Shown here: piece after piece, positions 1-63,559 of the stretch
How positions within the stretch are numbered: the first letter of the stretch is position 1
How the letters are laid out: each line of letters begins with the position of its first letter
Assembly (NCBI GenBank): GCA_023105745.1
Contig: JALGQZ010000001.1
Span: 57,679,437-57,743,436, forward strand
DNA length: 64,000 nt
Reading direction: 5' to 3'
Source of the DNA: Austropuccinia psidii
Lineage: Eukaryota; Basidiomycota; Pucciniomycetes; Pucciniales; Sphaerophragmiaceae
Program-made: the position numbers and the translations under genes
Notes under the pieces: generated by a model
The model's input: the letters and a program-made list of their open reading frames with translations, nothing else
What the model was told of the DNA's origin: nothing
The model's database searches: none

Positions 1-310
1 CTGTGTCTTTCAAGAGGAGTGGGATAACTAGGGATCCGCAGCAGGATGCATATTGCATTTGCGTGTGCTTGCAATATTCCAAATTGCTGGATTGGAAAGT
101 GATTGCATGGGAACATCAATGTGTAAAATTGAATAATGCACTATCCACTGCAATTTTCAGGTTCAGGTATTTGAGATCGTGAATTTGCCAAGGTCAGGCG
201 TGAGCTTTCTTTTTAGCCGCAATTAAAAAAGATTCATCCATCGCAATCCAATTTAGGTGATATTAAGAAATCAGTAATCATTTGGTTTCGTTTCATTTTC
301 TGCTGAAAGC
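1..310. promoter_or_regulatory. 5' flank of the TET-like gene
   Basis: No ORF of note is present. This is the upstream flank of the dioxygenase gene that starts at 311. No TATA box or other element stands out clearly enough to call. Confidence 0.3.
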
Positions 311-1655
311 ATGCCATTCACGAAAAAAGGAAAAGAGCGTAAAAGGGAACTCGCGAGAAAGCGTCGGGCTGAGGAAGGAAAGTGTGAGTTACTCGCTTAA
401 TCTCAGTGTATATATATAGATATATATATATGCTTCCACATTTATGTGGCACCCTCATTGGGCCCCACTGAGGAACATGGGCTTTAGTCGGTTCAGATTG
501 TGCCAATGTCATGTGGGCTCCAACAGGGAAGTCAAAGGATGTGTGCCGAAGAAAGCTCCTTGGCAGTATCTGATATCTTGTGTGCTTCAACACATAGTGA
601 TCCCGCAACCACTCAGGAATAGTAGCAGATCCCAAAAGACAAATGAGCGCAAAACGACCCGAATGAATAGGTTTTTTTCCTCCTCTCGCCCAACAGCACA
701 AATATCAATGCCAGTATCAGCAAATATCACCCCAAGTGAAATTCGGAGGGTGGTGGATGTCAATCAGATCAAACGCATTCACTTTGGCCGTGTGGCAATT
801 TTCTCTTCAACCGGATTACTCATTGCCCTTGTTGAATTCCGACCATTCACAACAATGAGTGAAGTCGAGGTCAATCAATGGGATGAATTATCACAATTCT
901 TATTTCGCGAAAAGAGGTTCACTGACCCTATTGCAACAAATGGAGCATTACTGGAGGGATTTATGTTCGCGATTGGGTGGCGCAAATGCACCACGAAGAA
1001 TGAACAATTTGGTCTGTATGGTAGTGCTGGCAAAATTGAAAATGCAAAAGATGAATGGCGGGACCGAGGTGCCAATCTTAGCTCGGTGGGTCGCATTCTA
1101 GGTCAATCCTTACGATATGTTGGGGATAATTTATTTCAGAAGATTCAAAATTGCTACAACTCATTGGGGGTTCCGTCTTTTGATCAAGTCAACTATGAAG
1201 GCGATATTCCGGCAAATCAGGGTGCATTCGAGTTCGCTTCCGCACTCACTTTCACCATGAATGGATTCAAAAACGCACCTCATGTTGATAAGGATGCATC
1301 GCTGTATGCTTCGGGATGGTGGTTTCAAGCTGATAAGCGGACCGGCCAAATTCAAAGAGATGCGTCAAAGCGGTGTACAGGGGGAAAATTGATTTTCCCA
1401 AATGAGCATTTTTGGATTGATCTATCCACATGTCATGGGCTCATTCAGGTAGTGTGGGCCAGTAGTACATTTGTTCATTATACTGATCCAGCACAGGACA
1501 ACGAAAGCACGACACTAGTGGGTATGTCCGCACAATGCTCAAGCAGGTTAGCAAAAACAATGCGGCAAAAAAGCAATGGCTATTATGAGATTGGCGAGAG
1601 AGCGGGCTATCAAATCAGGGATGGTAATACAATCTCATGCCGATTCAAAGAATGA
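311..1655 (+). CDS. TET/JBP-like 2-oxoglutarate-Fe(II) dioxygenase, two exons, 343 aa
   Basis: The spliced model is exon 1 311-383 and exon 2 697-1655. The donor is GTGAGT at 384. The acceptor follows a strong pyrimidine tract and CAACAG, and the phase joins exactly. Exon 1 encodes a very basic, NLS-like N terminus (MPFTKKGKERKRELARKRR). Exon 2 carries the double-stranded beta-helix core: metal ligands H220 and D222 in the HVD motif and a distal H285 in FVHYTD. Family members oxidise methylated pyrimidines in DNA or RNA using Fe(II) and 2-oxoglutarate. In rusts and other basidiomycetes they are greatly expanded and linked to DNA transposons. The Arg that normally binds 2-oxoglutarate (T-R-[IL]-x motif) appears to be Leu298, with the nearest Arg at 308, so activity is doubtful. 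The 313-nt intron is long for this window and contains a TA-dinucleotide run (411-431). The family call is firm; the substrate is unknown. Confidence 0.82.
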
Positions 1656-1779
1656 GGAGATTTGCAAGTGGGTTGGGTAAGTAATGGTGAGGTAAGGCAG
1701 AGGACAATATACACCAGGATTGGATGGATTCGAGTGCGGGAGATGGGGTGTCTCACATGAAAAAGGGGTGAAGTGGATT

Positions 1780-1805
1780 ATGTACGGTGGCATGCCATCG
1801 TACAT
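1780..1805. repeat. 26-bp imperfect palindrome (copy 1)
   Basis: The left half is ATGTACGGTGGCA and the right half is its reverse complement with one mismatch. It lies 125 nt past the stop codon of the TET-like gene. Related copies occur at 6677, 6810 and 12575. Confidence 0.8.
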
Positions 1806-1837
1806 CGGTCCTGGTTTGTTGCTATTGTCCAGGATGC

Positions 1838-2400
1838 CAATGCTTCACACGCGAATCCTCATGCTTGTGCAGGTTCTGACAATGCTAAAAGTTCCTTACG
1901 CCTATGCGGGGGGCCATCGCTACACACGCCAATCCTTATGCCTGTGCAGGCTCCCAAAAGTTTACACGCCAATCCTTACGCCTTTACAGGCTTTCAACGA
2001 TTCACACGCCAATTCTTACGCTTGTGAAGCTTCCCCACAATGCTGAAATTTTCTTTAGCCTGTGCAGGATCCCAAGAATTCACACGCCAACTCTTACGCC
2101 TGTGCAGGCTCCCAACAATTCACACGCTAATCCTTATGCTTGGGGAGGGTCCCAAAAGTGCTAAAATTCCTTACGCCTGTACAGGCTTCCGACGATTCAC
2201 ACGCCAATCCTTACGCATGGGAGGGTTGCCAACAATGGTGACAAATTCTTACGCCTGTGCAGGCTCCCAACAATTCACACGCCAATCCTTATGCCTGTGC
2301 AGGCTCCCAACAATTCACACGCCAATCCTTACGCCTGTGCAGCCTCCCGACAAGTCACACGCCAATCCTTACGCTTGTGAAGGTTCTAGCCAATTTAAAC
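1838..2400 (+). repeat. 40-bp minisatellite, about 13-14 units
   Basis: This is a tandem array with the core CAATTCACACGCCAATCC followed by TTACGCCTGTGCAGGC. Exact 40-nt spacing is seen from 2271 to 2350, with indels elsewhere. Because 40 is not a multiple of three, three units form a 40-aa super-repeat that is open in several frames, so long apparent ORFs here are repeat artefacts. Some units have a variant middle containing AATGCTAAAA. Its role is unknown. Confidence 0.85.
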
Positions 2401-2812
2401 AATTCAATACATGAGTAAGACTAATAGCGTGTGACCATAGGAAAGGCCATGTTTCACGAATCTGGACTCGATTGCTCACATACGGGAACCTCCCGCTTTT
2501 TTACAGTTAAGAATGGGTATGGCTCTAAACCATGGGAGAAGAAAATATAGGAGAGGATAACGGCAACTATTGGCGCATTTTGAGAAAAAGAGGTTCACGA
2601 AAACAAATACTCACTCAAACTCTTGGTGGGGCACTTACAAAAATAATTCTCACGCAATCAGGGTTTTTCTCTAAGGAGGAAATAAGTAATTTTTACGTGA
2701 ACAAAGAATGTAATAGAATTTGAACATAACAATAATTTAAGACAAATATTTTATTCAAAAGAAAGTATTACAAAAAATAAAAAGAGGAAATAATGACATT
2801 TTTTTTAAATTT
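2401..2812. other. Non-coding spacer
   Basis: A 63-codon ORF (2532-2723) has no recognisable motif. The last 100 nt are A-rich and lie just past the stop of the reverse-strand proline-rich gene, so they probably include its 3' UTR. Confidence 0.3.
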
Positions 2813-4162
2813 TTATTTTTCGAGGAATTTGGAGACCATCCCGGTTATGTCCTCCTTTGGATAAGCCTCCAGTGCCTGGGCAAGGAGGGAGTTTAGTTCC
2901 TCCCGGAATTCCCGGTGCATCTCATTTCGATAAGTTGCATCCACGAAAGGAATCATGTGGAGCAAGCGACGATGCTCCAACAAGATTCGGTTGATCGAAT
3001 CGTGGACGATGGCTCGAGGAATCATTAGGGTCGGTCGCAGGTCGGTGAATTCCTGGCGAGCGTCATCGTGAGAATGAGACGCGCTTGGCACCGGGGGGGA
3101 GGAGGCGTTGGGGTTCTCGGGGGCACTGGAAGGGAACCGGGGTTGGAGTGGAAGGGGAAGATGGTGGAGTCGGTGAAGAAGAAGGGGGAGGGGGATGGGG
3201 TGATCCCACGGGCGTATCGTCGATGATGATGATTGAGCGAGGAGTGGCGGGACGATCTGGAGACGGTCGAAGAAAAAATGAGGAAAGGTGAATATGGATC
3301 GAAGAGAAAGAAGGGGTGACTTACCATAAGGTTCCTCCGTGGATTGCGTAGGAGCCACCTCAGGTTCTGGCTCACGAGTCGTATTGTCCTCAGGTGGTTG
3401 GGACGATGGACTCGGGCCAGGAATAGGTGGCTCTTCGGTTCGGGAGGGTTCTAAAAAAGGAGTAAGAGTCAGTTCACTTGACTCGAAAGTGAAAGTGAAA
3501 ATGAAATGAAACTTTGGCTGCTTACCACGGAATAATTCCTCAGACCATCGGGTGCCACTCGGGCCTGGAGTGGGTTGCCGGGGGGTTTGCTCGCGAGGCA
3601 AACTGGGAACGGGAGAGTCGTGTCGGGGGGGATTCGGGGGGTTTGGTTCTATGAGTAATGGAAAAAAGTCAGTATTATTGTGTGAAGAGAAATGAGATAA
3701 AGAGGAGAAATAAAACTTACTTTGGCGTTTGAATCCCATCGGTGACAAGACATGGTGACGATCAGCCCAAGCTCGAATGTCCTCTCGCCATCGCCATCCT
3801 TCATCGGCCGGATAATCACTTCGCTCCGGTCGAGGAGTGAAGTGACCATCGGATGGTGGCCTAGGAGGGGGAGTGGACAAATCGATACTGGAGGGGACAG
3901 GGCTAATCGTCCGGAATCGTTCCCGTTGGCCTGTTTGGGGGCCCGGCGTCCATTCACGCTCGGAAATGGTTTCATCATTGTCGACCACAAAGGAGTCCTC
4001 GCGAGGGCGTCTTGGGCGAGAACTCGTCTGGCCTCGTGGTCGGAAGGGGCGGACAACGAACGAACATTTCTTGTGTGCTTGTCGGCAAGCATCACAAGCG
4101 TCGTTCGTTGTCGAGGAGCGAATGCAGGGGATACCCCGCTTGGTGCATAACGTGCACGACAT
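2813..4162 (-). pseudogene. Proline-rich protein with N-terminal Zn2Cys6-like cysteine cluster, four exons, probably frameshifted
   Basis: The N terminus has C3, C6, C13, C23, C26 and C33, spaced C-x2-C-x6-C-x9-C-x2-C-x6-C as in fungal Zn2Cys6 domains, followed by a basic stretch and a long Pro/Ser/Arg-rich low-complexity body. The C terminus is a helical domain (motifs RRLLHMIPF and EELNSLLAQALEA). On the reverse strand three introns with GTAAG donors fit: 3649-3720 (72 nt), 3451-3525 (75 nt) and 3257-3324 (68 nt). Splicing the third restores an IIIIDDTPV segment. The C-terminal domain then lies one base out of frame, so a single-base indel around 3110-3215 is likely. I recognise this as a high-copy rust family of unknown function, so it may be transposon cargo. 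DNA binding is only suggested by the cysteine spacing. Confidence 0.65.
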
Positions 4163-4600
4163 CTAAAAACAAAACAAAACAGGTTAGTAACTGAATAGAA
4201 AGTAAGCAATCAAGAAAGAAAAGGAAGACATACGATGATTTATATAAATTTAAAACAGAATCAATATAAAAACGCTCTAGTCGGAAGTTTTTAAAAGTCT
4301 GGAAGGAAGTCGTGAAGAAAGAAAAATATTAATATCGGTACATAATGTTGACGAAAGTTTAATTGGAGAAAACGTACAAAGTAGATAGAAGTGGGGTTCT
4401 GAAAGTATTAGCAGGAAAAACAAAAAGCGAGCAGGAAGGGGAGTGGGGTTAGTCGAGTGCGAAAGAAAAGACTGGAAAGGCAGGAAGACGAGGGGGATTA
4501 CGCACAAGAAGGACAAACGCGGGTGAGGTTGAGCGAAGTGGAGCGGGTGAGAAAGAAAGTGAAGTGCGTGTCGTGTGAAGATGGTCTTTTATACCAAGGT
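4163..4600. promoter_or_regulatory. 5' flank of the reverse-strand proline-rich gene
   Basis: About 440 nt, purine-rich on the + strand and therefore a pyrimidine-rich promoter on the gene strand. No specific element is recognised. Confidence 0.3.
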
Positions 4601-4603
4601 GAA

Positions 4604-4698
4604 GCTGAGACAATCTCAGCAGTTGCAGCACCCGCAAAAGTCTCAGCTTCAAGGCGTGTGGGCAAAATTGAAGCTGAGTCTCAGCGAATGCTGCAACT
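4604..4698. repeat. Nested inverted repeats built on GCTGAG/CTCAGC
   Basis: Three stems are visible. GCTGAGA and TCTCAGC pair at 4604-4620. CTCAGCTTCAA pairs with TTGAAGCTGAG at 4642-4677 (11 bp, no mismatch). The outer AGTTGCAGCA (4621-4630) pairs with TGCTGCAACT (4689-4698). The same word recurs to about 5740. Confidence 0.75.
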
Positions 4699-4773
4699 GA
4701 GAAGTGAAATGCTCACGTGAGGCAGAAGAACAATGGGGGTCTGGCTGAGTATTTCAATTTATTGAATTGTCAA

Positions 4774-5106
4774 GCTGAGTATTGCAATTTATTGAATTGT
4801 CATGCTGAGTCAAATCCCCTTTGTTTCCTTAAATTGCCACCCGATCACCCAGGAGGGTGGTCGTGAGGCCCTTATTGATTGTGCATTGTGGGTGCAATGC
4901 ACAAGTGACCGCGGCAAGATCACCGGCCTTATGGCCTGGTGATAGTCTTTGAACAAAGGGGGGGGCTGTAAGACAAGTGAATACAGCGTGAGCTTGCCTC
5001 GACCCATTGCTCAGGTTTGCTTTCAGGTCATAATTGAAATGCTCAGTGGCTGAACATTTTAATTGCACAGTAATTGAACAATTGATATAACAATATCAAA
5101 TGCACC
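4774..5106. repeat. ~333-bp repeat unit, copy 1 of a tandem pair
   Basis: The unit starts at GCTGAGTATTGCAATTTATTG and ends before the same sequence at 5107. It contains hairpins, including ATCACC/GGCC pairing with GGCC/GGTGAT (4919-4943) and GTGCATTG with CAATGCAC (from 4881). No coding sense is apparent. Confidence 0.85.
4919..4943. repeat. Hairpin in repeat copy 1
   Basis: The stem is ATCACC plus GGCC, the loop is TTAT, and the returning arm is GGCC, a bulged T, then GGTGAT. The equivalent hairpin in copy 2 has a matched base-pair change. Confidence 0.7.
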
Positions 5107-5479
5107 GCTGAGTATTGCAATTTATTGAATTGTCAAGCTGAGTCAAATCCCCTTTGTTTCCTTAAATAGCCACCCGATCACCCAGGAGGGTGGTCGTGAG
5201 GCCCATGTTGAATGTGCATTGTGGGTGCAATCCACAAGTGACCCATGCAGAAAAGCACCCGGTGCATTTGGTCACAAGTGACCGCGGCGAGATTACCGGC
5301 CATATGGCCTGGTAATAGTATGTGAACAAAGGGGGGGGCTGCAAGACAAGTGAATACAGCGTGAGCTTGCCTCGACCCATTGCTCAGGTTTGCTTTCGGG
5401 TCATAATTGAAATGCTCAGTGGCTGAACATTGGAATTGCACAGTGATTGAACTATAGATATAACAATATCAAATGCACC
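5107..5479. repeat. ~373-bp repeat unit, copy 2 of a tandem pair
   Basis: It is near-identical to copy 1 but carries about 40 extra bases (roughly 5240-5280) flanked by a direct repeat of CACAAGTGACC. That fits a small insertion with target duplication, or loss from copy 1. Confidence 0.85.
5292..5316. repeat. Hairpin in repeat copy 2
   Basis: ATTACC plus GGCC, loop ATAT, GGCC, bulged T, GGTAAT. The C-G pair of copy 1 (4921/4941) is a T-A pair here (5294/5314). Confidence 0.7.
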
Positions 5480-6676
5480 ATGCTGAGCCATTGCTCAGTC
5501 GTTTTTGTATGCGCGCACTCTGAGCATTTGGCACAGCATCGGATGACATTTCAGCCAGGTGCAGCATTTCACACGCTTTGGTGAAGTGCTCCAAACTGAG
5601 CCTTCCAATGAACTATTGCAAAAAAGTTCATTCCATGGCTTTACTGAGCACTTTCTCACGGTGCTTTTGACCATGACATGCTCAGCTTGTGTGTGCAAAT
5701 CGGGTGAAACGCAATGCTGAGCATGTGGCACATGAGCTACGTAAATGCAAACGATCGGAAGGTGCATGCACATTTGCTAGATGGATGCAGGCTCAAGTAG
5801 TATTACACCTTCCTGATCTGTACAGTACAGTCGACACTGTAGTACGCAGTACACCTTTGTAAATGTACTGCGGGGCAGAGCAAAAAGCTGTTCAACAATG
5901 TAACATGCAATAACGTCAAGCCATCGAGTCATATCTCTCACCTGCATCCCTTTGATGCACCTTGTTGGACAGCTCTGCCTAACTACGGCACAGATGCGCA
6001 TGTAATCCAAATTAATGTAAGTGGGTCTTAATGGGATGACTTAATATTTGGGTCTAACACAAAGAGTTGATTCACTCCGGTGCCATTGTTGGGGCAAACA
6101 ATGACTGGCCCGCTTGTTCATTGTCGGGCAGCCACACGCTTTCATACGCACCCCCGATGGGTCATACACAGGCAACTTTCACACGCCTGGAAGACATTTT
6201 ACTGCCAGTCTTCCAGCTGCCTATTTTCTTGGTCGGGTTGTCAGCTTGACTGCAGACGCTCACCCGCTTGCGCGTGGAAACCTGAGGCCAATCAGTGTGG
6301 ATTTGCTTCAGCCTCATCCACATTAGAATAACAATCCCAGCCTATGATTGCTGAGGCTGGTCATGTTCGCGTGGGTATCTCCCACCGCGGGTCATTTTCT
6401 TCACGTTCTCACACGCCCCGCGCAAGTTGTGGCACCTGGCTTGCAGCCAAAAAATTCCTCGGGCATGTGGCCTCTTTCTCCGGAGTTCTGTACGCGCGTG
6501 AGGCAAAGAGGCCAATGCCAATCTCGGTGGATTAGTACTCGCCTCAAACGCCATAGGGGTGAATGTATATGTGGATCACGGCTCACGGCTGGCGCCCCCT
6601 TTGATCATCCCAGACATTCCCCCCTGAAAGCCCAGTATGCATCAGTCAGCAAAAAACTTCAGGCCAAACCAAAGTC
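5480..6676. other. Unassigned CpG-containing spacer
   Basis: To 5740 it continues the GCTGAG/CTCAGC-rich sequence. From about 6060 it holds degenerate CACACGCC-rich sequence reminiscent of the 40-bp minisatellite, with overlapping ORFs that have no domain signature. I see no supportable gene. Confidence 0.4.
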
Positions 6677-6702
6677 ATGTTCGGTGGCATGCCACCGAAC
6701 AT
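6677..6702. repeat. 26-bp perfect palindrome (copy 2)
   Basis: ATGTTCGGTGGCA is followed directly by its exact reverse complement. It belongs to the same family as the palindromes at 1780, 6810 and 12575. Confidence 0.9.
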
Positions 6703-6809
6703 ATCTCACCCGCCCACACACAAACATCCCCACAGTGAGATTGCCCTTTGAAACTGCCAACATTGCCCAGTAGGTCCCTGTGAACAATTAACCTGGGGAG
6801 GATACGCTC

Positions 6810-6837
6810 ATTGTTCGCTGTCACACCAGCGAACATG
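6810..6837. repeat. Palindrome (copy 3), 9-bp perfect arms
   Basis: TGTTCGCTG (6812-6820) pairs with CAGCGAACA (6827-6835) around a 6-nt loop. It is a diverged member of the 26-bp palindrome family and lies 367 nt upstream of the SNF2 start codon. Confidence 0.8.
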
Positions 6838-7201
6838 ACTGCATGCCTCTAATATGCCCTCCACAATAAGCTGCTACAACCCACCCAATTTCGGATGTGC
6901 TAATGTCAGCCTTGTTCCACCAAAGGTTTCGTAACTCGCTGCAGATCCAGCAGTCAAATGGTGCACCCACATTTTGGCCACCTTGCCTTGATATATGCCC
7001 CAAATCGGATATGAAAATTATGAGCCCAAGAGGCCCACCTCCATCAAGACCATGCACGTAACCACAGGCCATCCCCCTTTTGGCCTGTTGCTGCCACTCA
7101 TATAAGTTCCCCACCTGCGCTTATTCCTCTTCATTCCCTTTAGCTAACCCCTCCCGATCATATAATTCCCAACTGTCCCCAAATAATTCAAAATAGCCAT
7201 C
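6838..7201 (+). promoter_or_regulatory. 5' flank of the SNF2 gene
   Basis: About 364 nt between palindrome copy 3 and the SNF2 ATG, becoming C/T-rich in the last 100 nt. TATAAG occurs near 7100 and is a weak TATA candidate. Confidence 0.35.
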
Positions 7202-9768
7202 ATGTCAACCCCTTCACAACCACTTTGCATTGGGATGATTAATATTCGTATTCAAATAAATAGTGATATAACCTTAAAGCCTGAGAATTCCCACTTAGGT
7301 TCTTGGATTATCCTATGGCACAATCAACACAACATATTCGTATATCTCCCCAATCACCAGCATGCTATTGGCTCTCTCCCGGGAACCCTTTCCCAAACGT
7401 TGATACCATTCCTTGGGGCACCCAAAACGTTCATGCACTGTGGTCCTGGTGGGGCATGGATTGAAAATTGCCAATCCAATCCTACTCAAATATTATTCGT
7501 TGAGGGAGTATTTATGACTGATGCCAATGATCCCTCCTCATCTCAGAGACCCAATCTAGCATTGATGTTCTTCACATGGTATCCAAACGTTCTATTCATA
7601 ATGGAAAGCTTTCGAAAACAAGATTTCAAGCTTAAAATGCCCAAAGAATATGACTGTACTACTCATTGTCAATGTCAACTCTTTACTCCGACATTTCCCG
7701 CTTCAAACTCGACGCCTGCTTCATATCCTGCTGTTTCATCATTGATTTCCAAGCAAAAACTGATACAATTACCCAGTGGATCAGACCTCCCCATGATGAC
7801 CCCGCCCCATGCCATTATTCAAACCCCCCTCCTCCCTCATCAAAAGACCGGACTAGCTTTTCTCTGGGATCGAGAAATCCCCAATGGCCAATCAGCCCGT
7901 AACCTTTGGGCAACCTCACCCCCAGGATCCACTTTTAATGCCAGGCACATCATTACAAACAAGGTCGTTAGCTCATTTGAATCCCTTTCGACCAATACCC
8001 CTCTTGGAGGACTGCTTGCGGATGATATGGGATTAGGTAAAACCATTCAGGCCATTGCTCTAATTGGTACCTCCAAGGAGCGGATGATTGCAAACCCCCA
8101 TCGCTCCACGCCCACCATGATCATCTGCCCCCCTCGCTTAATTACCAACTGGCAATCAGAAATATCCAAGCATGCTCAGGCTGGAGCACTGCATGCCAAA
8201 ATCTACCATGGTCCCACTCGTCACTCATTATCCCAAGCCGACATCTTAAAATATGATATCATCATCACTTCTTACAATACTATCACCCAAGAATTTAAGC
8301 AAACCAATCCCTCTACATCATTCATTTTTCAAATCAATTGGCATCGTATAATCTTGGATGAAGCACAGTGAGTGGCTGAGCTTAAATGATTCAAATTACC
8401 TTTTATATCCAATAACCCTTGCCCCCTCTTATAGCTATATTCGCTCTCAATACACTGCCACTCACCGTGCCATTAATAGCCTCCTTTCATCCCGTCGAAT
8501 ATGTTTAACGGGCACACCTATTCACAACACCATTTATGACCTTTTGGGCATAATATCCTTCATCACTCAACCCCAGAGCGCCGATCAAGATAACTGGTCA
8601 CCATTCATCCTGAGTAGTCTTTCAAAAGGTTGCAATGATATTTTGCATTTGGCATTGCGGCATTTAAGTTTGCGCCGCACCAAAACCACACATCTCGAAT
8701 CTCTCCCCACTATTAGCCATCATTATGAGCTGCTCCCACTCAACCCGACCATGCAGCAAGAATATTCCACATTATATGAAGAATTCCTATCATCCAAAAG
8801 CAAAGGACCAGGAGAGTTTTTCAGAAATATTAATAAGCTGCAAATATGTTGTAACCATCACATCATGCTTAACACAATTGCGGAGGCGGAGCTGGAAGAC
8901 CCCGAGGGCAGGAGCACTCAGGATAACTCCCCAAGAATCACACGAACTATTGTGGATGTGGAAACATGCATGATGAGTAGTAAAATTGCACACCTCCTAC
9001 AAAGCTTAATGAAGAACAAACAAACAAGGTGTGGTCCAACGAAATCGGTGGTTTATACCCAATGGACCCAATTTCTAGATTTGTGCGTTAATTCTAATAT
9101 GCATCCATTACCAATTGACTCCATCTGACTTTTTTATATTGTAGAATTGGTATTGCTCTTGCCCATCACTCTATCCTTTCAGCACGAATTGATGGAACAA
9201 TTACACCACGAGCGCAGGACAAGGCGCTTGAGAATTTCTTCAATAATCCTGAATGTGAAGTACTCATTGCATCCATTGCCGCGGCTGGAACTGGCCTCAA
9301 TATAACTTGTGCTAATGTAGTCTATTTAATGGTGAGGGGCCCCCCAAAATTCTCCCCTGATTTTCGGACCCTGACATCCACATTTCCAGGAGCCCAATTG
9401 GAACCCAGCCATTGAGGCTCAGGCTGTTGATCGTCTACATCGTATTGGCCAACAACGACCTGTACAGGTCATCCACTATATCACTCCTCATTCAGTTGAG
9501 GTCAACATGCGGAAGGTACCTTTCAAGCTCATCTTTCACTTGATTGTATTACTATTCTGAAATCATTCCTTATGGGAATGCCATATTCCAATTACCAATA
9601 GGTCCAAGAAAAGAAAAAATCATTAACTGCGTGAGCCTTACTGATATTATATAATTTGTGATTGACAAAGTTGATAACTCCTGTTGACTCTGGCACAGGT
9701 CCACAATTATGAACACCATGAGCTGGATCGAACTTCTTCAATATTTCCTCAATGAAAATGAGCAATAG
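7202..9768 (+). CDS. SNF2-family DNA-dependent ATPase, six exons, 741 aa
   Basis: The exons are 7202-8367, 8435-9082, 9145-9331, 9390-9515, 9602-9630 and 9699-9768. All five introns (58-86 nt) are GT-AG and every phase joins. Splicing completes the DEAH box, whose His codon is split by intron 1. Walker A DDMGLGKT is at residues 274-281, DEAH at 386-389, and the LTGTP motif follows. Lobe 2 has the VYTQWTQFLDL segment and a motif VI with QAVDRLHRIGQQRP near residues 678-691. These remodel or translocate along DNA using ATP. The layout resembles the Rad5/Rad16/HLTF branch, but no RING finger lies between the lobes. The N-terminal 200 residues match nothing I recognise. It is convergent with the unknown gene, with a 172-nt gap. 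The last two small exons are less certain; without them the protein ends at 9634. Confidence 0.88.
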
Positions 9769-9940
9769 AGTATTATTGCAAGGGAGACGGTGATACATTT
9801 CAATTCATATTGTCTATATTCTAACATATTTAGCAAGTTGTTGCATCCTTAAGAGATAATAATCAGATTTTATTACACCTGCACAAATAATTCACAAAAT
9901 TTTAATTTGTCACAGTGCTATACCGTGACCAATTACTAAG

Positions 9941-12002
9941 TTATTGCAGAGCATCACCATTAGGCCTAATAACTGGCATGTCAAGTATCTTGAGGGCGCT
10001 AGTCTGCATCTTACTACAGCCTTTGAGCCAATCTTGATCAAATACCTGAAATGATAGGCCTTCCGGAATATCACCATCATCTGTCGATCGTAATTCTGGC
10101 AATCTATCAATAGTTTTTTTACCCTTTTTTTTAATCCGATTACAAAACTCTATGTCTCTATCCATTTTCAATACCAAATCATTAAATAACTGGGAGCGCC
10201 AGCGTAATCCCACTTTGCGGTAAACTTGACGGCCATTTTCCAGTACCTCCTCAGTATCTGAGCATACTCGAGGGTCATTGAATTGTGATGCTAGGATGGG
10301 AAATTTAGCCGTATCACACCATTCACGACGGCGCTCACAGGTCTGCACATAATCAAGTAGATCATCATCAGACTTGGTCCACAATGAAGAAGAGATACAG
10401 TAACTAACTCTTTGACGGATCTTTGCGAGCTTTTGATTCTCTTTCTTTTTTACCAAATACTCGGCATCCTTTTGAATAGACTTCCATTCTCTTTTCAAAT
10501 AAGTGAAATATCGCTCCATTAAAGCCGCCACGACCCCATAGTTGTTATGATCCTTGTTCCAACAGTAGTGATGATACTCAGTGCTGACAAGTGCGAGACG
10601 GAATGTACGGTAAAACACCATAGACATCAGCTCGTTGAACGGATGTTGCCATGAGCTCTCCCAGTCCCAAGTGAATCGCTTTAGTCCTAGCTTGTGGAGC
10701 TCATTTTCGCAGTAGCTTTGGAAACCCTGAGACTGAACCTGTGTTGATGGCTCATTGAACACATCCTCGGGGACATAACCGAGATGACCAGCCACTTGAA
10801 TTGCAATTTCACGCTCTTCTGTGCTGGGTGGTGTTGGTAGTGAGGAAAAATCCTTATCCCTAACTTTGAGTAGGAACAGGCAATGTGCGTGTACTGCTGA
10901 TCTCATTCCATGGACATTCTCTGGAAGTTCTGCCTTCAGCCATTTTTGTTGCTCCTTCTGGCTTGCACGTTTCGCCACATTGTGAGCTTTGCGGGCCTGG
11001 TTCCTTTGCTGTCTGACCTCGGATTGTTCAAGCATACTCTGGGCGAGGCCCAGCTGAGGATGGGTGAACTCACTATTTGATTGAGTGCCTTGCTCATGCG
11101 CTGTGAAATTGTCCCTCCTTGGTTCATCATTTCTTTCACTTTGAGTCGGAGACATGTTCTCATCCTCATCATCCACCATTGTTTCTCTTGATGTACTGGC
11201 ATGACCCGTTCTTGGTTTGGAGGCATATGGATGATGACGTCCACTGACTTTCTCTTTATGGACCAGAGGTGAAGACGCATAAAGTTCATCCCCTGCTATG
11301 CAAATCATCAGTTAACACATTAAAACATTAATGAAGACTGGTCATCCTCACGATCTTCAATTGGCTCCTGAGATCGGACTGACTTGCCTTTAGGTGCCAT
11401 ATCTAACCCATGAAACAAACATATCAAATCATGAATAAGTTTCTACTCCAAAATTCAAATGACTTACTTTGATGAAGCGTCAATACTGGATTTCCCTCCG
11501 ACAGACCGCTCCAAGTTACATTTTCCAAAGGTCTTTTTCGTAGCCCCCCATCCACGCGCCTTTCATCACCCACATGAACCTGCGATCCTGATGGAATATT
11601 GAGGGTTGGCTGTTTACTTTGGCCAAAGGGATCCTGGGATGCGACTGGACTCCGACCGGGATTAAGGAGGAACTCACGTGGAAATTTTGATTGGGGATTA
11701 GCGTGTGAGGAGATTTGAGGTGTGCCTTCTGGCCCCTGAGACACATGAATTTGTGTATTAGTGGGATTCGGGGGAATTGGAGTGACGGAAATATTTGGGA
11801 TCGACCAAGTGCTTGAAGTTGGAGCCTTTGGATTGCCCACATCAATGTTAAGACCTGATACATTCATTGAGGATGCGATAGGGGTTGTGAGAGGAATGTT
11901 GGGACTCAATGGTGACTGTGTTTGAACATATTCTATGCTAGATTCACTATTTGAGTCATGAACAGAACCTGAACGGGATTTATGTGACTTGAAAGATGAC
12001 AT
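9941..12002 (-). CDS. Unknown fungal protein, three exons, 646 aa
   Basis: On the reverse strand the exons are 12002-11468, 11402-11352 and 11295-9941. The donors are GTAAGT and GTGAGG, the introns are 65 and 56 nt, and the phases join exactly. The N-terminal ~270 residues are Ser/Pro/Gln-rich and look disordered, with a basic KRASQKEQQKW segment. The rest is a conserved-looking, mainly helical domain with motifs HPFNELMSMVFYRTFRLAL, TEYHHYCW, ERYFTYLKREWKSI and RKVGLRWRSQ. I know of related expanded proteins in rusts but no assigned function. The start is head-to-head with the transposase across 960 nt, and the end faces the SNF2 gene. Its intact frame between two transposon-type genes suggests it is cargo or a partner of the element. 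No catalytic motif or zinc finger is visible. Confidence 0.75.
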
Positions 12003-12962
12003 AAGGGCCGAAAAAGTACAGTAATATTTTTAACTAGATAAAACACCTCAGTATTATGATAAAATAGAGTGATATGAGATGAAATCTTTTCAAATTTAGA
12101 ATAGAGAAATTCTATGAATAGTTGGAACTAAGTGTTGTGTGGAAGTCGGATAAGACTCTTTTGAGGAGAATCCTCCCTGCCTCCTCTTGAGCTCCTCCGC
12201 TTTTGTCGGAAACCACCCTGCACGGCCTACCAGCATATAATGTGATATTTCCTTGATCTGAAAGGGGACCCATCATCCATAGGTAATCATATTTGGTAAC
12301 ATTTCCGCCTCCCCATTGTCACATTTTGTGAATTATCCAAACTGCCAATATATGCATTGAAATTCCCCAACATTGTACATCTGTAAAGGGGTATATTCAT
12401 GAAGGATTTACCCACAAAAGAGACATCACCTTTTCACGAAAGGCAAGACAATCCAAATCACATTCCAACTGATTCAAAGCCCGCCGTACTCAAACCAAAT
12501 ACCAAGACTTTAGCTGCACTCCAACCCCTTATGTAATAGAGTTATATAGTTATGTCTGTAATAAGGTTTAAACCATGTACGATGGCGTGCCAGCGTACAT
12601 GGATTAAATGTTAATCCCCTCAATTCAATGGTAACACTTCACTAATGGAACCCCCTCAATGGTCAAACCCGCACTATCACAATGTGTAAATAAACTAGAA
12701 TATGTATGAGCATTGAGCAGCATGGCATTTTACCCAATTAAACGCCTAACCAATTCCGCCATCCAGATGAGACATGTTAAACTTTATCCACTGCAGCTCA
12801 TGCTCCATTACAAATGGGATAAAATCCTCAGCTGGCTCAAATCATCTCCCCCTTCATAAATAATCACTGAATTTTATTTCCAATTAATAACACTCCTAAA
12901 CACTTTCACATCAACCATAGATATTTATACACAAACCAACCGTACTCCCAATTCCTGCAACA
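12003..12962. promoter_or_regulatory. Bidirectional promoter region between the unknown gene and the transposase
   Basis: 960 nt separate the two divergent start codons. The region contains palindrome copy 4 (12575-12600), 363 nt upstream of the transposase ATG. That spacing is almost the same as copy 3 has from the SNF2 ATG. No other element is called. Confidence 0.5.
12575..12600. repeat. 26-bp imperfect palindrome (copy 4)
   Basis: ATGTACGATGGCG is followed by TGCCAGCGTACAT, with two mismatches between arms. Flanking CC and GG extend the arms to 12573-12602. Confidence 0.8.
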
Positions 12963-15900
12963 ATGACAACCCGGCCATATTCCTCAATGCGTATATGCAT
13001 GTGTCAACACTGCTCAACTCAAACACATTCTTCCCCTGAGGGTGATAGGCAAGGAGTTGCCTTCACACCTTTCCAATATAAACAGCACATTAAAAAGCTC
13101 AAATCAACCATTGCACCCAAATCTCTTCCAAACATCCCTACTTCTGCATCAGGATCTGGGTGCCCACAAATTCTATTGGATCAAATCTTCCCAGCTGATT
13201 ATTCACGTTTGACCCAAAGCACTTTCCCAACTCCAGCGGGTCTCAATTCAACTGCACAGAAACCATATAGTGGCAGTCAAACCCTTCCCCCACAAGACCT
13301 AGGAATGATAATATCTGCCATTCTATCATTAAGGTATAATTTACCCCGCAGGGCTTCACGCATACTCAACCCCGCCCTGAACCTGCTGATCAAGTCCAGT
13401 ATCTCAAGCTCAGCTGGTCCCCCCGCTCCTGCATTCCATATACCTCAAGATCTGAGTACCATATTTGAACATCTCCAATTGGAGCCAGTGATTCAAAACT
13501 ATATATGTTGTCCTCAATGTTTCTCTCTTAATGGCCTTACTGAATCAGTCACAACTGACCAACCCCACTGTCAACGCCATAATGACCCAAATGATCATGA
13601 TCCCCCTTGCACACAATCATTAGGCAAATTCATCTATTCATCTGAACCCCACACCCAAAACACAACCAACATGAAGCAAAATTTATACCAACAAAACATT
13701 TCATTTATCAACCATTCAAAAATTGGCTTGCCAGATTCCTCCAGCGGGCTGGAATTATGGACATTCTGCATCAACATCAACAATCCCAAACTCCCGAAGA
13801 TTCCCCAAAACGTGACGTCTGGGATGGATTGGTCTGGAGACGCTTCACTGGCACTAAAAATATCCATGACCCCCCATTCATGTCCATTCCTGGTGCATTG
13901 GCCTTCTCCATATATGTGGACTGGTTTAATGCACATGGAAAGTCAACCCGGTTGGCTAGCATTGGACCTATCATGCTTATTTGTCTTAATCTCCCCCCAA
14001 GTGAAAGATTGAAGCCCGAGAATGTCTATGTTGCAGGAATCATCCCTGGTCCGAAGGAGCCAACTGCGCTTCAATTGAATTATCTATTAATGCCACTCAT
14101 CAACGAGCTCAAAGAGCTATGGCAAGGTTACCATTTTGCACCCACCTCAACAGGTCCATCAGGATCCTTTATCCGTGTTGCCATCCTCACAGCCATTGCG
14201 GATGTGGTTGCCATGCGCAAGCTTACTGGATTTATTTCCCATTCAGGAAACCACTTTTGTAATTTTTGCACCATTCACAAAGCTCAAATTGAAGAAATTG
14301 GTCCTCAATTTCACTACACGCGCTCATACCAAAGTCATAAATCAACCATTGCCAAATGGCTTCGGGCAACCCCACAACAAAGACAAGCAATTTTCTCTGA
14401 GTATGGAGTGCGATATTCAATTTTGGAAGACCTTCCGTATTGGGATGCAACCAGAATGGTTAATCTTGACATAATGCATAATTTAATACTTGGAATTTTG
14501 AAGGATCATGCAACTTTCAAATTGTGCATTCCAGAGGCGAAATCAAAAATTTACTTCAGGTCCCGCAGGAAATCCAATGACACCAACAGTTCAGACTCAG
14601 ATTCCATGACCTCCAACAGCTCTCTTGATAAAATCACATTGAGAGAGGCCCGCTCCCTGAGAAGAGACGCAGCAAAAATAATAAATGAGCCACTCCCCAC
14701 TACTTCCACCCGAAAAAACTACTTCCCAATGCCCACCCCTAACACAGAACATCCATCTAGTGGTTCTGCGGAGATTCCTTCATTTGATTCCGATTACATC
14801 CCCACTTCTGAAATACCCTCTGAATTGGATATCACTGCACTGAGTGATCACCAGATCAAGGGTGAGGCTCTTGAGCATCTCCGAAAAATCATATCTGAGA
14901 CCATAATTCCCTCATCATGGACAAGAGTTCCCCGCAAAATGGGTTCCCCCTCTCATGGTAGCTTAAAAGCCGCTGAATGGGCTCTCTTATATAAGGTCTA
15001 TATTCCATTTCTAATGCTCAGTCAACAGATGTCATTAGATGCACACCAATCTGCCAACACTCAAAGAAAAATGGGTCAGTCAGAAGAACTTGCAAATGAA
15101 CTAGCCAAGAATACATTCCATTTGATTAGTGCTATCAACATTGCCACAAGCTGGACTGTTTCAATAGATGATGCGACTGCATTTGCTGAACATTGGAAAA
15201 AATTCCGCCTTTCCAATCAACACCTGTTCCCAAAACAGAAAAGTAAACCAAATCATCATTTTGCTGATCATATTCCCGAACTCTTCCAACGTTGGGGCCC
15301 AGCACAAGCCTCAGCCACATGGGGTTATAAGCACTTGATTGGAGTATTTGCAAAGATGCCAACAAATAACAAGATATGTAAGTCAATTAATAAGATCAAT
15401 ATATTCACATTGATTAAACACCTGAACTGAATAAGACTAACTTTTTGCAACTCTGAATAGATGATATAGATAAAACCTTACTTCAACATATCTGTCGATG
15501 TTCCAACCTTTCCGTTCTCCTGAAATCCCCATCTGTGCCATGTGAAATAAAACAGCTTTTCGAATCACAGCCACCTGCCGTGTTCAATCACCATAAATAT
15601 AACAAGCCATCCCGCCATGACCAACAAAATTATGATTGCCTGGTTGAGTACTTACAGACTTTTCATGCAACAAGGGAAATAGTTGATTGGATCAGCTTAG
15701 ACACTACCGTGCAATCCACAAGTCCTCCCACTTCAAGGATTTTCTCACCTTGGTATTTTCCAGTTTCAAACATTAATATTGGGAACAATATATTTTCAAC
15801 TGAATCCAAAAATATCAGCAACAGTGTGATATGTTTTCTGAGGGGCAACTCACGACAATTTGGTATTATTGATAGCATTTTCAAAGTCTCTGAGCCATCT

Positions 15901-16122
15901 AGCATACTGAACAATAACTTTCTGATTTTAAAACCTTTGAAGATTGATGTGAATTTCCTACCAGATTGGCCGCATCTGAATATTTATAAAGCTGTTGGTT
16001 TTGATGATGGACACTTGATTATATCTGAAGAAGAAATAGAAGGTAACTGTGGATTGTATGATAACAAAGCTCTGTCATGTGGACTGCTTGTAATGATAAA
16101 GCCGTTATTTCATGATATTTAG
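12963..16122 (+). pseudogene. Plavaka/CACTA-like Tnp2 transposase, about 1,020 aa, one apparent frameshift
   Basis: The exons are 12963-15377 and 15461-16122. The intron is 83 nt, donor GTAAGT, acceptor GAATAG, in phase. The N terminus has a zinc-binding C-x-C-x2-C cluster (CMCQHC). Then come DVWDGLVWRRF, an LAFSIYVDWFN-type segment, a LNLPPSERLKPENVYVAGI block, an HFCNFC cysteine motif, NLDIMHNLILG and PNHHFADH. All are typical of basidiomycete Plavaka/Tnp2 transposases, which cut and paste DNA by a DDE mechanism. The reading frame changes between 13643 and about 13690 with no convincing intron, most simply by loss of one base in the A-run at 13677-13681. The usual W-x(4)-E-R-x(2)-G motif near 15320 reads WGYKHLIG, so an acidic residue is missing. 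The copy is probably inactive unless the frameshift is a sequence error. Confidence 0.85.
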
Positions 16123-16383
16123 TCTACTAAAATGCAAATCTCTCAGATTCATTAGCAATTTTGCTAGTGAAATAATTGCCTCAAAATTTAGTGACAGAGA
16201 CATTCCATTGTGACAAGCAAAGCCCATTATTTCACATTGCCACAAAGAAGTTACTATTTTGACATTGGGTACAGTGTGAATAAGCCAAGTCCAATGATCA
16301 AATGACCCACACACTCACCTTTCACAGCATCCAAAATTTCTAACTGCGCCATCATCATGTTGGAAGCGGAATCGGCTTTTGCG
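16123..16383. other. 3' flank of the transposase
   Basis: No gene or clear repeat is seen. I could not identify terminal inverted repeats for the element here. Confidence 0.3.
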
Positions 16384-16545
16384 TACCCACACCCGCATGT
16401 GCACCCGCACGCGCCAATGCACACGCACACCCACCGGCACGCGCCAATGCACACGCCCACGCACACGCCAATGCACACGCAAACCCACCCGCACACGCCA
16501 ATGCACACGCAAACGCACCCGCCCCCACGCATGCACACGCACACT
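16384..16545 (+). repeat. CA/CG-rich minisatellite (units of 30 and 24 bp)
   Basis: The units share the core CGCCAATGCACACGC and follow each other at 30, 24 and 30 nt. All unit lengths are multiples of six, so His/Thr/Pro-rich or Val/Gly-rich ORFs appear on both strands. These are low-complexity artefacts. Confidence 0.85.
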
Positions 16546-16758
16546 TCATGGATGACCTGGTGAAGTCAAACCCCCCGCCTACATCAAGACTGGCTGAAGG
16601 ACATCTTTGATGTGTGTGTGTGCAAACAGGCGGGTCTGGTGTAATTTTTACCAATCATCGGACGGTTGTGGGATGATCAGGCGGTGAGGAATCTGAGTTG
16701 AAGGCACAGGGGAACCAATATTATTGGATGTCACAGGATTTGGTGTAAGACCAGAGTG

Positions 16759-16858
16759 TGACGTGTGCTCGACGTTCGCTTGATTTTCGCTTGACGTGAG
16801 CTCGACTTTTATCCTGCTTGACGTTTGCTTGACGTGAAGTCAATCGCCGACGATTGAC
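16759..16858. repeat. TGACG/CTTGACGT word cluster ending in a perfect hairpin
   Basis: TGACGT occurs four times (TGACGTG at 16759, 16792 and 16829; TGACGTT at 16819), with TCGAC or TTGA in between. The cluster ends in GTCAATCG (16839-16846), loop CCGA, CGATTGAC (16851-16858). TGACGT is the core of bZIP (CRE/ATF) sites; function here is unproven. It sits at the switch from CpG-rich to CpG-poor sequence. Confidence 0.55.
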
Positions 16859-17264
16859 ACGAGATTCGCCCCGGTGAGTTTCACTGGTTTTGACATTTCT
16901 CACACACATTCTGATGTGTTTTGAAGGCTTGAAACCAGGTATTACTATACCAATTGCTGAAATAAGGGTCTAAAATGGCTAAAGCCAGCCCTTTTTTGCT
17001 CTCAAACAGGGTTCAACAATTCCATAATTGGCTTTTCTGTTGTCAGAATGTTTCTCAAAACTGATAAAAAAAATTACTTTTCAAGCAAGAAAATTGGTGG
17101 CTATAAAAAAATGTCTTCTTTGCCCCACTTTTCTCTTCATGTTACACTCTTTTCCTTTTATAAGTAGTTTAGACACTGTTAAACCAATCAATAAAAGATT
17201 AAAAAAACCAATTTTATATCATTTTGAACCTTTTACCCACTTGAAAAATCATTATAATCATTTT

Positions 17265-25702: not shown

Positions 25703-27240
25703 AGCCCAGAGAAGAAAGAAACAACTATACTGGTGATAAGCCCCTCAGAGATTAATCCTGAGTTTTTTAATGCAGTAAAAAAATCTTATTCAAAACACAA
25801 ACAGTGTAGCATTATGATACCACTCCTACAACAGAGATATAGGGGCCCAGAACTGAAATCACATTTATAGGAACCTTGGCTAAGGGACTATAAGGGAAAC
25901 AGGGTCTTGCTTATTAATGGACTCCTGTACCACTGGGAGAAACATAGTAGTCCCCTGATAGCTATAGACAGAGATCACATCACACTTATGTTTCATGAAT
26001 TTTATTACTTCCCCTATATGGGACACATGAGTGAAGACAAAACCAAGGAGAGGAGAGGAAGAACAGCTTGGTGTTCTCAGTGGGAACAAGAGTTTAGTTA
26101 TCACATCAAGAATTGTTACAGATGGAATAAGGCAAATAGGAAAAATGGTAAGAAATATGAACTACTCCAACATATAGAGGAGCCTAAGAACCCATGGGAA
26201 ATAATCAACATAGACTGGGTAACAGGACTTGTCTCAGGTGAAAAAGGAAACTTTGATTCCTTTATAGGACTTGTGGACAGATTTAGCAAGAGTTTGAGAT
26301 TCCTACCATGTCACAAAGAGGATACAGCTATCAAAACAAAACTCATATTTTGGTATATCCTTATAGAAACCTTTGGCATGACCAAGATATTAATACATGA
26401 TAGGAACCCTAAATTCACTTGAGAATTTTGAAAAAATCTTTATTACATTCTTGGGACCAAGCTTGAACTATCTACAGCTTACCAGCAACAGAAAAATAAA
26501 CTAGCTGAAACAATGATCCAAAATATGGAAGAAATCATTAGGATATTCTGTTCCTATGGCATGGAATTAAAATACTCTGAAGCATATAACCATGAGTGTT
26601 TTACACTTCTACAAGCTATACAGCTGGCTTACAACACCTGAAAGAACTCAATCACAGGGAAATAACCTCCTATGATAAAGAAAGGATGGAATCCCCTATT
26701 GCCAGTGGATAAGCTGAAGAAAGACCTTATTACATTCCACCCTATAGCCAATACCCTCCATGCTATATGCAAGAGGGTATGTGATTCAGAAGAAAGATGC
26801 ATATCTGAAGCAACAGAGTGTAACAAGAAGAGTTATGACAACACCCACAGGGAACCAGACTTCAGGGAAGGTGACCAAGTGCTTGTGTATACCTTAAACT
26901 TGAATAATCTGGAAAACCCAAGAAAATGATAGACTTATATTCTGGGGCCATTCAGTATCATCAGATTGATAGGGAAGAATTCAGTGGAGGTTAAGCTCAC
27001 AGAGGAATTATCTAGGAAAGACCCAATATTCCCAGTAAGCATGGTCAAACCTAACCCCCAATATTGAGAGGATAGTTTTCCCTCCAGAAACAGAAATATT
27101 GCTCCACAAGACATTGTGGAAGTTTTGGACTCCCCTGGCCCAGTGAAAAAAATCATCAAAGCCGGAAAGATCAGAATTAACAGCAAAGAACATAGACAAT
27201 ATCTGGTCAATTTGAAGAACCAGGCAGCTGATAAAGACAA
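25703..27240 (+). mobile_element. Ty3/gypsy relic 1: integrase and C-terminal domain remains
   Basis: The largest open part (25907-26422) covers the HHCC zinc-binding region, in which one Cys of the final C-x2-C is Trp (NCYRW). It also covers the start of the DDE core, with Asp in NIDWVTG and in HDRNPKF. A stop follows at 26420. 26672-26929 carries the GWNPLLPVD region and 26935-27240 a chromodomain-like tail in degraded form. Inactive. Confidence 0.85.
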
Positions 27241-62878: not shown

Positions 62879-63559
62879 TTGGAAAAACCTTATCCACTTC
62901 TACTAAGAAGGCCAGCTTACCTAGCCAGCCCAAGAGTTAGAGAATCCTTGGAGGTACACATTAAAGAGTTAATGGACCTTGGAGAGTTGAGACAAGTAGG
63001 ACATAATAAACAGGTAGAAGTCACTACACCTCTCAGTATAACTTGGCACAATGGAAAATCCAGGATAGTAGGGTACTTTAGGGCTTTAAACACCTATACT
63101 ATCCCTGACAGATATCCAATACCCAGAATCCATGAGGCATTAACACAATTTTTTCAGGCTAAGCTCATTACAGCCATCAATTCTCTAAAGGGCTTTCACC
63201 AAGATGTCCTAACAGACAAAGCCAGAAAAATATTGAGGATAATAGTCCACTGTGGGATATATGAATATCTAAGGATGGAATTTGATATTAAGAATGCACA
63301 TTCGTATTGTCAGAGAATGATGAACACCATATTTCCTGAAGGATTATTGGAAGGATGGTTAATCATCTATATTTATTATATCATAGTTTGCTCAGAAACT
63401 TGGGAAAATCACTTAAAAATACTGGAAAGAGTCTTACAAAAGATATTTCAAGTAAATATGAAAATTTCCTTGAAAAAATGTCACTTTGCATATAATGAAC
63501 TAAAAGCACTGGGAAATGTTGTATCTGGATTAAGCTTGGGAATAGACAAAAAAAAGTAG
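62879..63559 (+). mobile_element. Gypsy relic 2: reverse transcriptase, open but catalytically dead
   Basis: A 226-codon ORF aligns end to end with gypsy RT (motifs [55 protein letters not shown] in near form). The polymerase aspartates are replaced: the Asp of the A-motif is Asn (TAINSLKG), the YIDD box reads YIYY, and the Asp before FRALN is Tyr. The frame nonetheless stays open. Confidence 0.9.

What the first reader, a model, noticed from the sequence alone, without database searches (positions are those of the whole stretch)
1780..12600. A recurrent ~26-bp palindrome marks every transposon-type gene in the first 13 kb
Four copies of one palindrome family (consensus half ATGTWCGNTGGCA) lie at 1780, 6677, 6810 and 12575, and I saw none in the remaining 50 kb. 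Copy 2 is perfect. Two copies sit almost the same distance upstream of a start codon: 367 nt before the SNF2 ATG and 363 nt before the transposase ATG. One lies just past the TET-like gene. Arms vary between copies (TTCG or TACG) yet usually remain self-complementary, which hints at a site bound by a dimer or a hairpin. It could be a shared operator, a transposase-binding site or a decayed element terminus.
Basis: partly seen in the sequence, partly recalled or inferred. Interest (0 to 1): 0.75.

Follow-up and report, generated by a model that had tools for sequence, protein, structure and literature searches.

The report
Palindromes punctuating one giant fungal transposon
The four palindromes are real and belong to a single roughly 20.7-kb jumping gene of what is almost certainly the myrtle rust fungus, where six copies of the site sit between its genes, most likely as docking sites for a paired DNA-binding protein, and one gene block has been lost exactly between two of them.

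Summary
Four copies of ATGTWCGNTGGCATGCCANCGWACAT lie at 1780, 6677, 6811 and 12575, none in the other ~50 kb. All lie inside one ~20.7-kb EnSpm/CACTA-type transposon (window -3805 to 16876; CAC..GTG ends, 3-bp target duplications) of a 1.015-Gb genome, almost certainly Austropuccinia psidii. Two more copies lie left of the window (-149; a weak one at -2988). The genome holds 9330 sites at <=3 mismatches, 0 for the reversed pattern; 32 of 32 exact sites examined (of 50 listed) are this element's 1780 or 6677 site. The six sites share no flanking similarity, their arms mostly stay paired, and all four plus-strand genes have one 362-476 nt upstream of the ATG. Best reading: cis-regulatory sites for a dimer, perhaps the element's own Zn2Cys6-like protein. 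An amplified subfamily (18 full-length junction matches among 40 places scored) lacks the TET gene exactly between two palindromes; where checked it carries another TET in a nested transposon. Neither MITE ends nor subterminal transposase sites. Function is untested; conservation evidence is weak; CpG decay shows no protection.

The parts
1..16876 (+). Window part of a ~20.7-kb EnSpm/CACTA-type transposon; left end is outside the window at -3805 (L005); right end GATTCGCCCCGGTG followed by target duplication AGT
   Evidence: Boundary alignment with 6 other genomic copies and TIR/TSD reading
1780..1805 (.). Palindrome site 3 of 6, ATGTACGGTGGCATGCCATCGTACAT, just past the TET stop
   Evidence: present in 17 of 17 TET-linked copies fetched without regard to the palindrome
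6677..6702 (.). Palindrome site 4 of 6, perfect, ATGTTCGGTGGCATGCCACCGAACAT
6811..6836 (.). Palindrome site 5 of 6, TTGTTCGCTGTCACACCAGCGAACAT, 364 nt before the SNF2 ATG
12575..12600 (.). Palindrome site 6 of 6, ATGTACGATGGCGTGCCAGCGTACAT, 362 nt before the transposase ATG, in the divergent intergenic region
311..1655 (+). TET-like 2OG-Fe(II) dioxygenase gene (exon 1 from ATG 311, intron, main exon in the ORF 420-1655; exon borders are my reading)
   Evidence: PF20515 E 4.7e-47; exon reading
2813..4162 (-). Zn2Cys6-like protein, N-terminal CX2CX6CX9CX2CX6C, otherwise proline-rich
   Evidence: (Zn_clus, E 0.089, below cut-off)
7201..9760 (+). SNF2 helicase-like gene (several exons; 3' end approximate)
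   Evidence: PF00176 E 1.4e-31 and 1.4e-13 in two ORFs
9941..12029 (-). Protein of unknown function, two ORFs; the 120 listed homologues of the larger ORF are all named from A. psidii
12963..16122 (+). Tnp2/EnSpm-type transposase (several exons)
   Evidence: PF02992 E 1.3e-15, Plavaka PF18759 E 3e-6; relatives in Phakopsora pachyrhizi (54%) and Puccinia graminis (47%)
1826..2410 (.). Minisatellite directly right of palindrome 3
   Evidence: self-similarity

Best explanation
The palindrome is an internal, repeated cis-acting site of one high-copy EnSpm/CACTA transposon. Six copies punctuate its intergenic regions; each plus-strand gene (an unknown gene G1, TET, SNF2, transposase) has one 362-476 nt upstream of its start codon. 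The most likely mechanism is a homodimeric DNA-binding protein that recognises the half-site GTWCGNTGG (roughly) on both arms and switches the element's genes on (or off) together. The best candidate reader is the element's own Zn2Cys6-like protein, whose gene has no site within 2.5 kb upstream. Shown: that it is one transposon, the number and positions of the sites, their palindromicity. As a side effect the repeated palindromes can serve as deletion points: one subfamily lacks its TET gene exactly between two of them.
For: Exceeds chance: 9330 genomic sites vs 0 in the reversed control, 0 in 100 shuffles of the window. One family: 32 of 32 exact sites examined, out of 50 listed, all on contig C1 (12 chosen as pairs 4.5-5 kb apart, 20 without such a partner), match the 1780 or 6677 flanks on both sides. 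All six sites are non-coding (P 0.003 for random placement). Four of four plus-strand genes have a site 300-520 nt upstream; random non-coding placements reach this with P 0.00025 in 20,000 draws (the interval was chosen after seeing the data). The six flanks show no shared similarity (best score 13 vs null 95% point 13), so the sites did not arise by copying larger segments. Arms: 85.8% of cells pair, 0 of 500 shuffles as high, A-T to T-A change at columns 5/22. Substitutions in the sites are 13 vs 35.8 expected from local flanks, P about 0.02. Zn2Cys6 cysteine spacing; site 6677 reads CGG-N10-CCG.
Against: No binding, expression or methylation data were examined. The G1 site is weak (7 mismatches). 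A second sample not chosen for the site (17 copies at 1780) shows little extra conservation: 14/442 vs 114/2266 substitutions, 5 distinct changes in 26 bp vs 32 in about 134 aligned flank positions. Against 6214 non-coding windows the sites do not rank as unusually conserved. In one search the number of pairs with a change on both sides is not exceptional (93 of 500 shuffles as high) and a slide of -3 columns scores nearly as well on covariation. The third base of CGG varies (G, C, A), which is not classical for Zn2Cys6 proteins. Site 1780 lies 3' of TET and upstream of no known gene. Counting any gene within 700 nt, 5 of 6 sites qualify, P only 0.075.
Confidence: 0.55

Rival explanations
1. 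Anti-silencing anchor: an element protein binds the palindromes and brings the TET dioxygenase and SNF2 remodeller to demethylate and open the element, as VANC proteins do for Arabidopsis VANDAL elements.
For: The element encodes TET, SNF2 and a Zn2Cys6-like protein; motif found, where examined, in one TE family and in its non-coding parts, as for VANC21 (passages of PMC5735166); A. psidii has 5mCpG, higher in young TE families (passages of PMC12774611); each consensus half-site holds a CpG.
Against: CpG-to-TpG decay at the sites is not clearly lower: 4/64 vs 154/1432 elsewhere in non-coding element DNA, and 3/34 vs 6/84 in the second sample. Sites are six dispersed palindromes, not dense tandem arrays in one orientation as for VANC21. 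A subfamily without the element's own TET still amplified, though 11 of its 18 junctions have another TET downstream.
Confidence: 0.2
2. Recombination or cassette-exchange site: the palindromes are punctuation at which gene modules (G1, TET, Zn, SNF2+unknown, transposase) are swapped or lost.
For: In element D (C3) the left flank of site -149 is joined to the right flank of site 1780 at a single palindrome, TET missing exactly between; the same junction on C2; 18 full-length junction matches among the 40 places scored. 11 of 11 TET hits with a 615-nt match in the 150 listed lie 6.2-12.3 kb downstream of such a junction on the same strand.
Against: All 18 look like one event that was then copied (95-100% identical). 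Other breakpoints lie elsewhere, e.g. the identity step at 5106-5112 in ordinary repeats. Two nearly identical 26-bp repeats can delete what lies between without any dedicated enzyme. Two queries for other palindrome-palindrome junctions were sent and never answered.
Confidence: 0.12
3. Transposase or TnpA-type accessory-protein binding sites used in transposition itself.
For: Repeated motif inside a CACTA-type element; a palindrome suits a dimer.
Against: Sites are internal: nearest about 0.8 kb from the left end and 4.3 kb from the right end, whereas the TIRs and subterminal minisatellites have different sequence.
Confidence: 0.08
4. Neutral mobile micro-palindrome or remnant MITE ends that happened to land six times in the element.
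For: Palindrome copies with unrelated flanks.
Against: No target duplications noticed by eye around the copies (flanks); 32 of 32 exact sites examined are the same two homologous positions of one family, none free-standing.
Confidence: 0.05

Closest known systems
TET+ EnSpm / CMCT DNA transposons of rust fungi (Kojima 2025, PMC12730594; parts 1-4 of 7 of the text and find-passages read)
   Same: 5'-CAC..GTG-3' ends, 3-bp target duplications, Tnp2/Plavaka-like transposase, TET/JBP gene, rust host; EnSpm families are reported from A. psidii among others (the text I read does not say whether those carry TET)
   Different: The paper notes no palindromic sequence at TET gene ends in the pairs it compared, and its main text has no hit for SNF2 or zinc (find); here palindromes of one family flank the TET gene
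VANDAL/VANC anti-silencing system of Arabidopsis (PMC5735166, passages read)
   Same: Short motif enriched in one TE family, mainly in its non-coding regions; element protein acts on silencing
   Different: The VANC21 motif is 9 bp, not palindromic and arrayed at high density in one orientation, in a MuDR-type element; here a 26-bp palindrome in six dispersed copies of an EnSpm element that encodes a TET dioxygenase
CACTA/Spm TnpA subterminal binding sites (recalled)
   Same: Repeated motif inside a CACTA element, element-encoded binding protein plausible
   Different: TnpA sites cluster near the ends; these are internal and intergenic
Zn2Cys6 (Gal4/Put3-type) dimer sites, CGG-Nx-CCG (recalled)
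   Same: Site 6677 is CGG-N10-CCG with two-fold symmetry; the element encodes a protein with the cysteine spacing
   Different: Third base varies between sites, and the central GGCATGCC and outer ATGT are also largely kept

Membership tests
EnSpm/CACTA transposon | CAC..GTG termini with terminal inverted repeats | tested here: met
   CACCAGGGCAAATCTCG.. / ..CGAGATTCGCCCCGGTG in the window copy; the two ends match over 46 bp with 3 mismatches (counted by eye)
EnSpm/CACTA transposon | 3-bp target-site duplication | tested here: met
   6 of 6 elements with both ends read by eye: AGT (window), TCT, TCT, TAT, AGA, ATT (D); two further copies had only one end read
EnSpm/CACTA transposon | Tnp2-type transposase with C(2)C and H(3-4)H motifs | tested here: met
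   PF02992 E 1.3e-15; CNFC and HHFADH read in the translation, motif definition from PMC12730594. Catalytic D-D-E not tested
TET+ transposon | TET/JBP dioxygenase domain inside the transposon boundaries | tested here: met
   PF20515 E 4.7e-47 at 420-1652, between mapped ends
MITE terminus or free palindromic mobile unit | Copies occur outside one host element, with own target duplications | tested here: not met
   32 of 32 exact sites examined are the 1780 or 6677 position of this element; limited to exact matches on contig C1
CACTA TnpA subterminal site | Clusters within a few hundred bp of both ends | tested here: not met
   Only five internal sites at <=6 mismatches across the element
VANC-like anti-silencing motif | Motif confined to non-coding parts of one TE family | tested here: met
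   Six of six sites intergenic by my gene models; family restriction in the sites examined
VANC-like anti-silencing motif | Dense arrays in one orientation | tested here: not met
   Six dispersed palindromic copies in 20.7 kb
VANC-like anti-silencing motif | Bound by an element protein; loss of DNA methylation | not testable with these tools
   Proxy only: CpG decay not clearly lower
Zn2Cys6 dimer site | Inverted CGG triplets at fixed spacing | tested here: inconclusive
   CG and spacing kept; the base after CG is G, G, G, G, C, A in the six left arms and asymmetric in some sites

The most novel reading that the evidence does not exclude
A fungal counterpart of VANC: a giant EnSpm transposon marks its own genes with palindromes that its Zn2Cys6-like protein binds, guiding the element's TET dioxygenase and SNF2 remodeller to strip silencing marks; the same palindromes are the joints at which the TET module can be dropped when another TET-bearing transposon has moved in.
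Probability: 0.13. Interest if true: 0.85.

Novelty: new variant of a known kind. Interest (0 to 1): 0.5.

Why it matters
The function of transposon-borne TET enzymes in fungi is not experimentally validated according to PMC12730594, and how such an enzyme would find its own element is open as far as I read. A long palindrome repeated near each gene of a TET-bearing transposon, in perhaps a couple of thousand copy-equivalents of a gigabase rust genome, is a concrete, countable candidate address. The subfamily that lacks its TET gene exactly between two such sites while a foreign TET sits nearby is a natural experiment on whether a transposon needs its own TET.

Tried and rejected
MITE or terminus reading: rejected by mapped ends and by 32 of 32 examined sites in one family. 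Terminator or 3'-UTR hairpin: sites -149 and 1780 begin about 145 and 125 nt past stop codons, but the other four genes have no site just past theirs. Hairpin: single strands fold (that call used the -149 site shifted by one base), which any palindrome does, so no weight given. Alignment A3 used shifted coordinates for two sites and was replaced by A4. In some searches the weakest site was taken at -2986, two bases off. CpG protection: no clear difference. Unknown protein structure: AlphaFold mean pLDDT 52, not used further. The palindrome gave no exact match in IMG/VR contigs (one central base left open) or in the prokaryote genome collection. Ten of 14 TET loci of assorted classes have no such palindrome (<=7 mismatches) within the ~4.1 kb fetched; two of these ten (L027, L029) proved to be nested TETs inside this same element family, the other eight were not followed outward. 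In one search I used 17 of 20 loci first asked for. Never answered: counts of asymmetric arms, two other palindrome-palindrome junctions, and divergent Tnp2 families.
Full report
OBSERVATION. The four palindromes are at 1780-1805, 6677-6702, 6811-6836 and 12575-12600. At up to 3 mismatches to ATGTWCGNTGGCATGCCANCGWACAT the window has three matches (the 6811 copy has four mismatches) against none in 100 dinucleotide shuffles. No such match lies right of 12600. In the whole genome (1,015,390,075 bases, 84 contigs) there are 9330 sites at up to 3 mismatches and none for the reversed pattern.

HOST. The proteins of the region have their closest named relatives in Austropuccinia psidii MF-1: all 108 hits for the zinc-cluster protein and the 120 listed of 171 for the unknown protein carry that name. 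CACTA is reported second after Ty3 LTR elements in A. psidii (passage of PMC12774611). The species name is thus an inference; the genome itself is unnamed.

THE ELEMENT. Comparing the window and 10 kb to its left with six other copies gives one repeat from window -3805 to 16876. Four of the six copies run from end to end; one lacks the left part and one the right part in the stretch compared. Substitutions are 0.65-4.6% per copy. The ends are CACCAGGGC.. and ..GCCCCGGTG, matching each other over 46 bp with 3 mismatches in the window copy, with 3-bp target duplications in six of six elements whose two ends I read (AGT, TCT, TCT, TAT, AGA, ATT). With a Tnp2 transposase (PF02992) this is an EnSpm/CACTA element. 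Gene order: G1 (+, about -2486 to -295, no confident domain), TET (+), Zn2Cys6-like (-), SNF2 (+), unknown (-), transposase (+). Gene models are my reading of ORFs; no transcript data were used.

SIX SITES. Besides the four, the element has TTGTACGGCGGCATGCCTCCGTACAT at -149 and a weak CAGTACGGTGGCTTGTTGGCGTACAC at -2988, better kept in a relative as GTGTACGGTGGCTTGTTGGCGTACAT. All six are non-coding. The gaps to the next plus-strand ATG are 476 (G1), 434 (TET), 364 (SNF2) and 362 nt (transposase); four of four such genes have a site 300-520 nt upstream, P 0.00025 against random non-coding placement, an interval picked after the fact. Site 12575 is also about 570 nt upstream of the unknown gene; the Zn gene has none within 2.5 kb. 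Site 1780 fits no promoter. With the looser rule of any gene within 700 nt, 5 of 6 sites qualify, P 0.075. The flanks of the six sites are unrelated.

ARMS. On 13 distinct site sequences 85.8% of cells pair (0 of 500 shuffles as high), covariation score 0.231 vs 0.135 (1 of 500), with an A-T to T-A change at columns 5/22. Against this, the number of pairs with a change on both sides (4 vs 2.7, 93 of 500) is not exceptional and the slide of -3 columns scores 0.168. The sequences are related, so this is supportive, not decisive.

CONSERVATION. Using copies not selected for the site in question, 13 substitutions against 35.8 expected from local flanks (9 vs 20.5 distinct changes), P about 0.02 over 4000 draws. 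A further sample of 17 TET-linked copies all keep site 1780 with 0-2 changes, but at 14/442 vs 114/2266 in flanks and 5 vs 32 distinct changes the excess is small. In one search the site windows were not unusual among 6214 non-coding windows. CpG decay at sites: 4/64 and 3/34; elsewhere 154/1432 and 6/84. I conclude that the copies are too young for a firm conservation claim.

FAMILY RESTRICTION. Of the 50 exact sites listed (contig C1 only) I examined 32: 12 chosen as six pairs about 4.9 kb apart, and 20 without such a partner. All 32 have both flanks of site 1780 or site 6677. From 9330 sites and about four countable per full copy I estimate of the order of 2000 copy-equivalents; this is an inference that assumes the unexamined sites are of the same family.

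TET MODULE LOST BETWEEN PALINDROMES. Element D (C3:16782895-16809011) has G1 and the whole right part (97.6% identical from 5106 on, 84.7% between 2676 and 5112) but no TET at the usual place: the left flank of site -149 runs into one palindrome, TTGTACGGTGGCATGCCATTGTACTG, followed by the right flank of site 1780. The same junction occurs on C2, and a search with it scored 40 of 1866 candidates: 18 match full length at 95-100%, the other 22 match only the left part, as an intact -149 flank would. D also carries, inserted near window 2660-2676, a nested transposon with TIR CAAGGCATGGC and 8-bp duplication ATAGTAAA bearing a different TET (27.7% protein identity). All 11 TET hits with a 615-nt match (sorted by hand from the 150 listed) lie 6.2-12.3 kb downstream of a junction, same strand; so 11 of 18 junctions have a listed TET, but one search scored and listed only 150 of 7499 candidates, so the other seven are undecided. 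A C9 copy has the nested insertion at the same point, still holds TET sequence homologous to window 354-700, and its -149 flank matches only the left part of the junction. The simplest order is: nested TET arrives, own TET is deleted between the palindromes, the lineage multiplies (inference).

MECHANISM. I favour dimer-binding regulatory sites shared by the element's genes (0.55). The Zn2Cys6-like protein (cysteine spacing CX2CX6CX9CX2CX6C; Pfam Zn_clus only at E 0.089) is the obvious candidate reader but nothing ties it to the site. The anti-silencing reading is attractive given TET and SNF2 in the same element, but the only proxy I could compute does not support it. A recombination role has one well-documented event and no proven recurrence.

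LITERATURE. PMC12730594 (parts 1-4 of 7 and find-passages) describes TET+ EnSpm elements in rusts and notes no palindromic sequence at TET gene ends in its comparisons. Listings of searches for A. psidii transposable elements, for EnSpm/CACTA palindromes in rusts and for A. psidii with palindromes showed no title or shown abstract start that describes this site; supplements and Repbase entries were not searched.

Noticed in passing
L041/L040/L027, C3:16786975-16795130: Nested transposon with TIR CAAGGCATGGC, 8-bp duplication ATAGTAAA, carrying a second TET gene and an ORF that resembles an ORC4-like AAA+ protein (resemblance recalled, not searched).
   Followed up: partly
L005:7514-9705 (window -2486 to -295): Sixth gene of the element, multi-exon, no confident family (CDC24 calponin E 0.00097, below cut-off).
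   Followed up: partly
window 4774-5487: Two tandem repeats of about 340-380 bp (82-84% alike in most copies compared); identity between this element and element D steps from 84.7% to 97.6% there, so recombination also occurs at ordinary repeats.
   Followed up: no
window 1826-2410, 16380-16530; L005:6550-7000: Minisatellites, two of them near the element ends: likelier candidates than the palindromes for transposase-partner binding.
   Followed up: no
L030 and L037, about 1460-1480 in TET orientation: Another near-perfect palindrome, CAGATGTGGTTTCAAAACCACATCTG, near a different TET class; may be coding.
   Followed up: no
window 25871-26422 and 62807-63559: Gypsy-like integrase and reverse-transcriptase ORFs in the AT-rich remainder of the window (read from the translation, not searched).
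   Followed up: no
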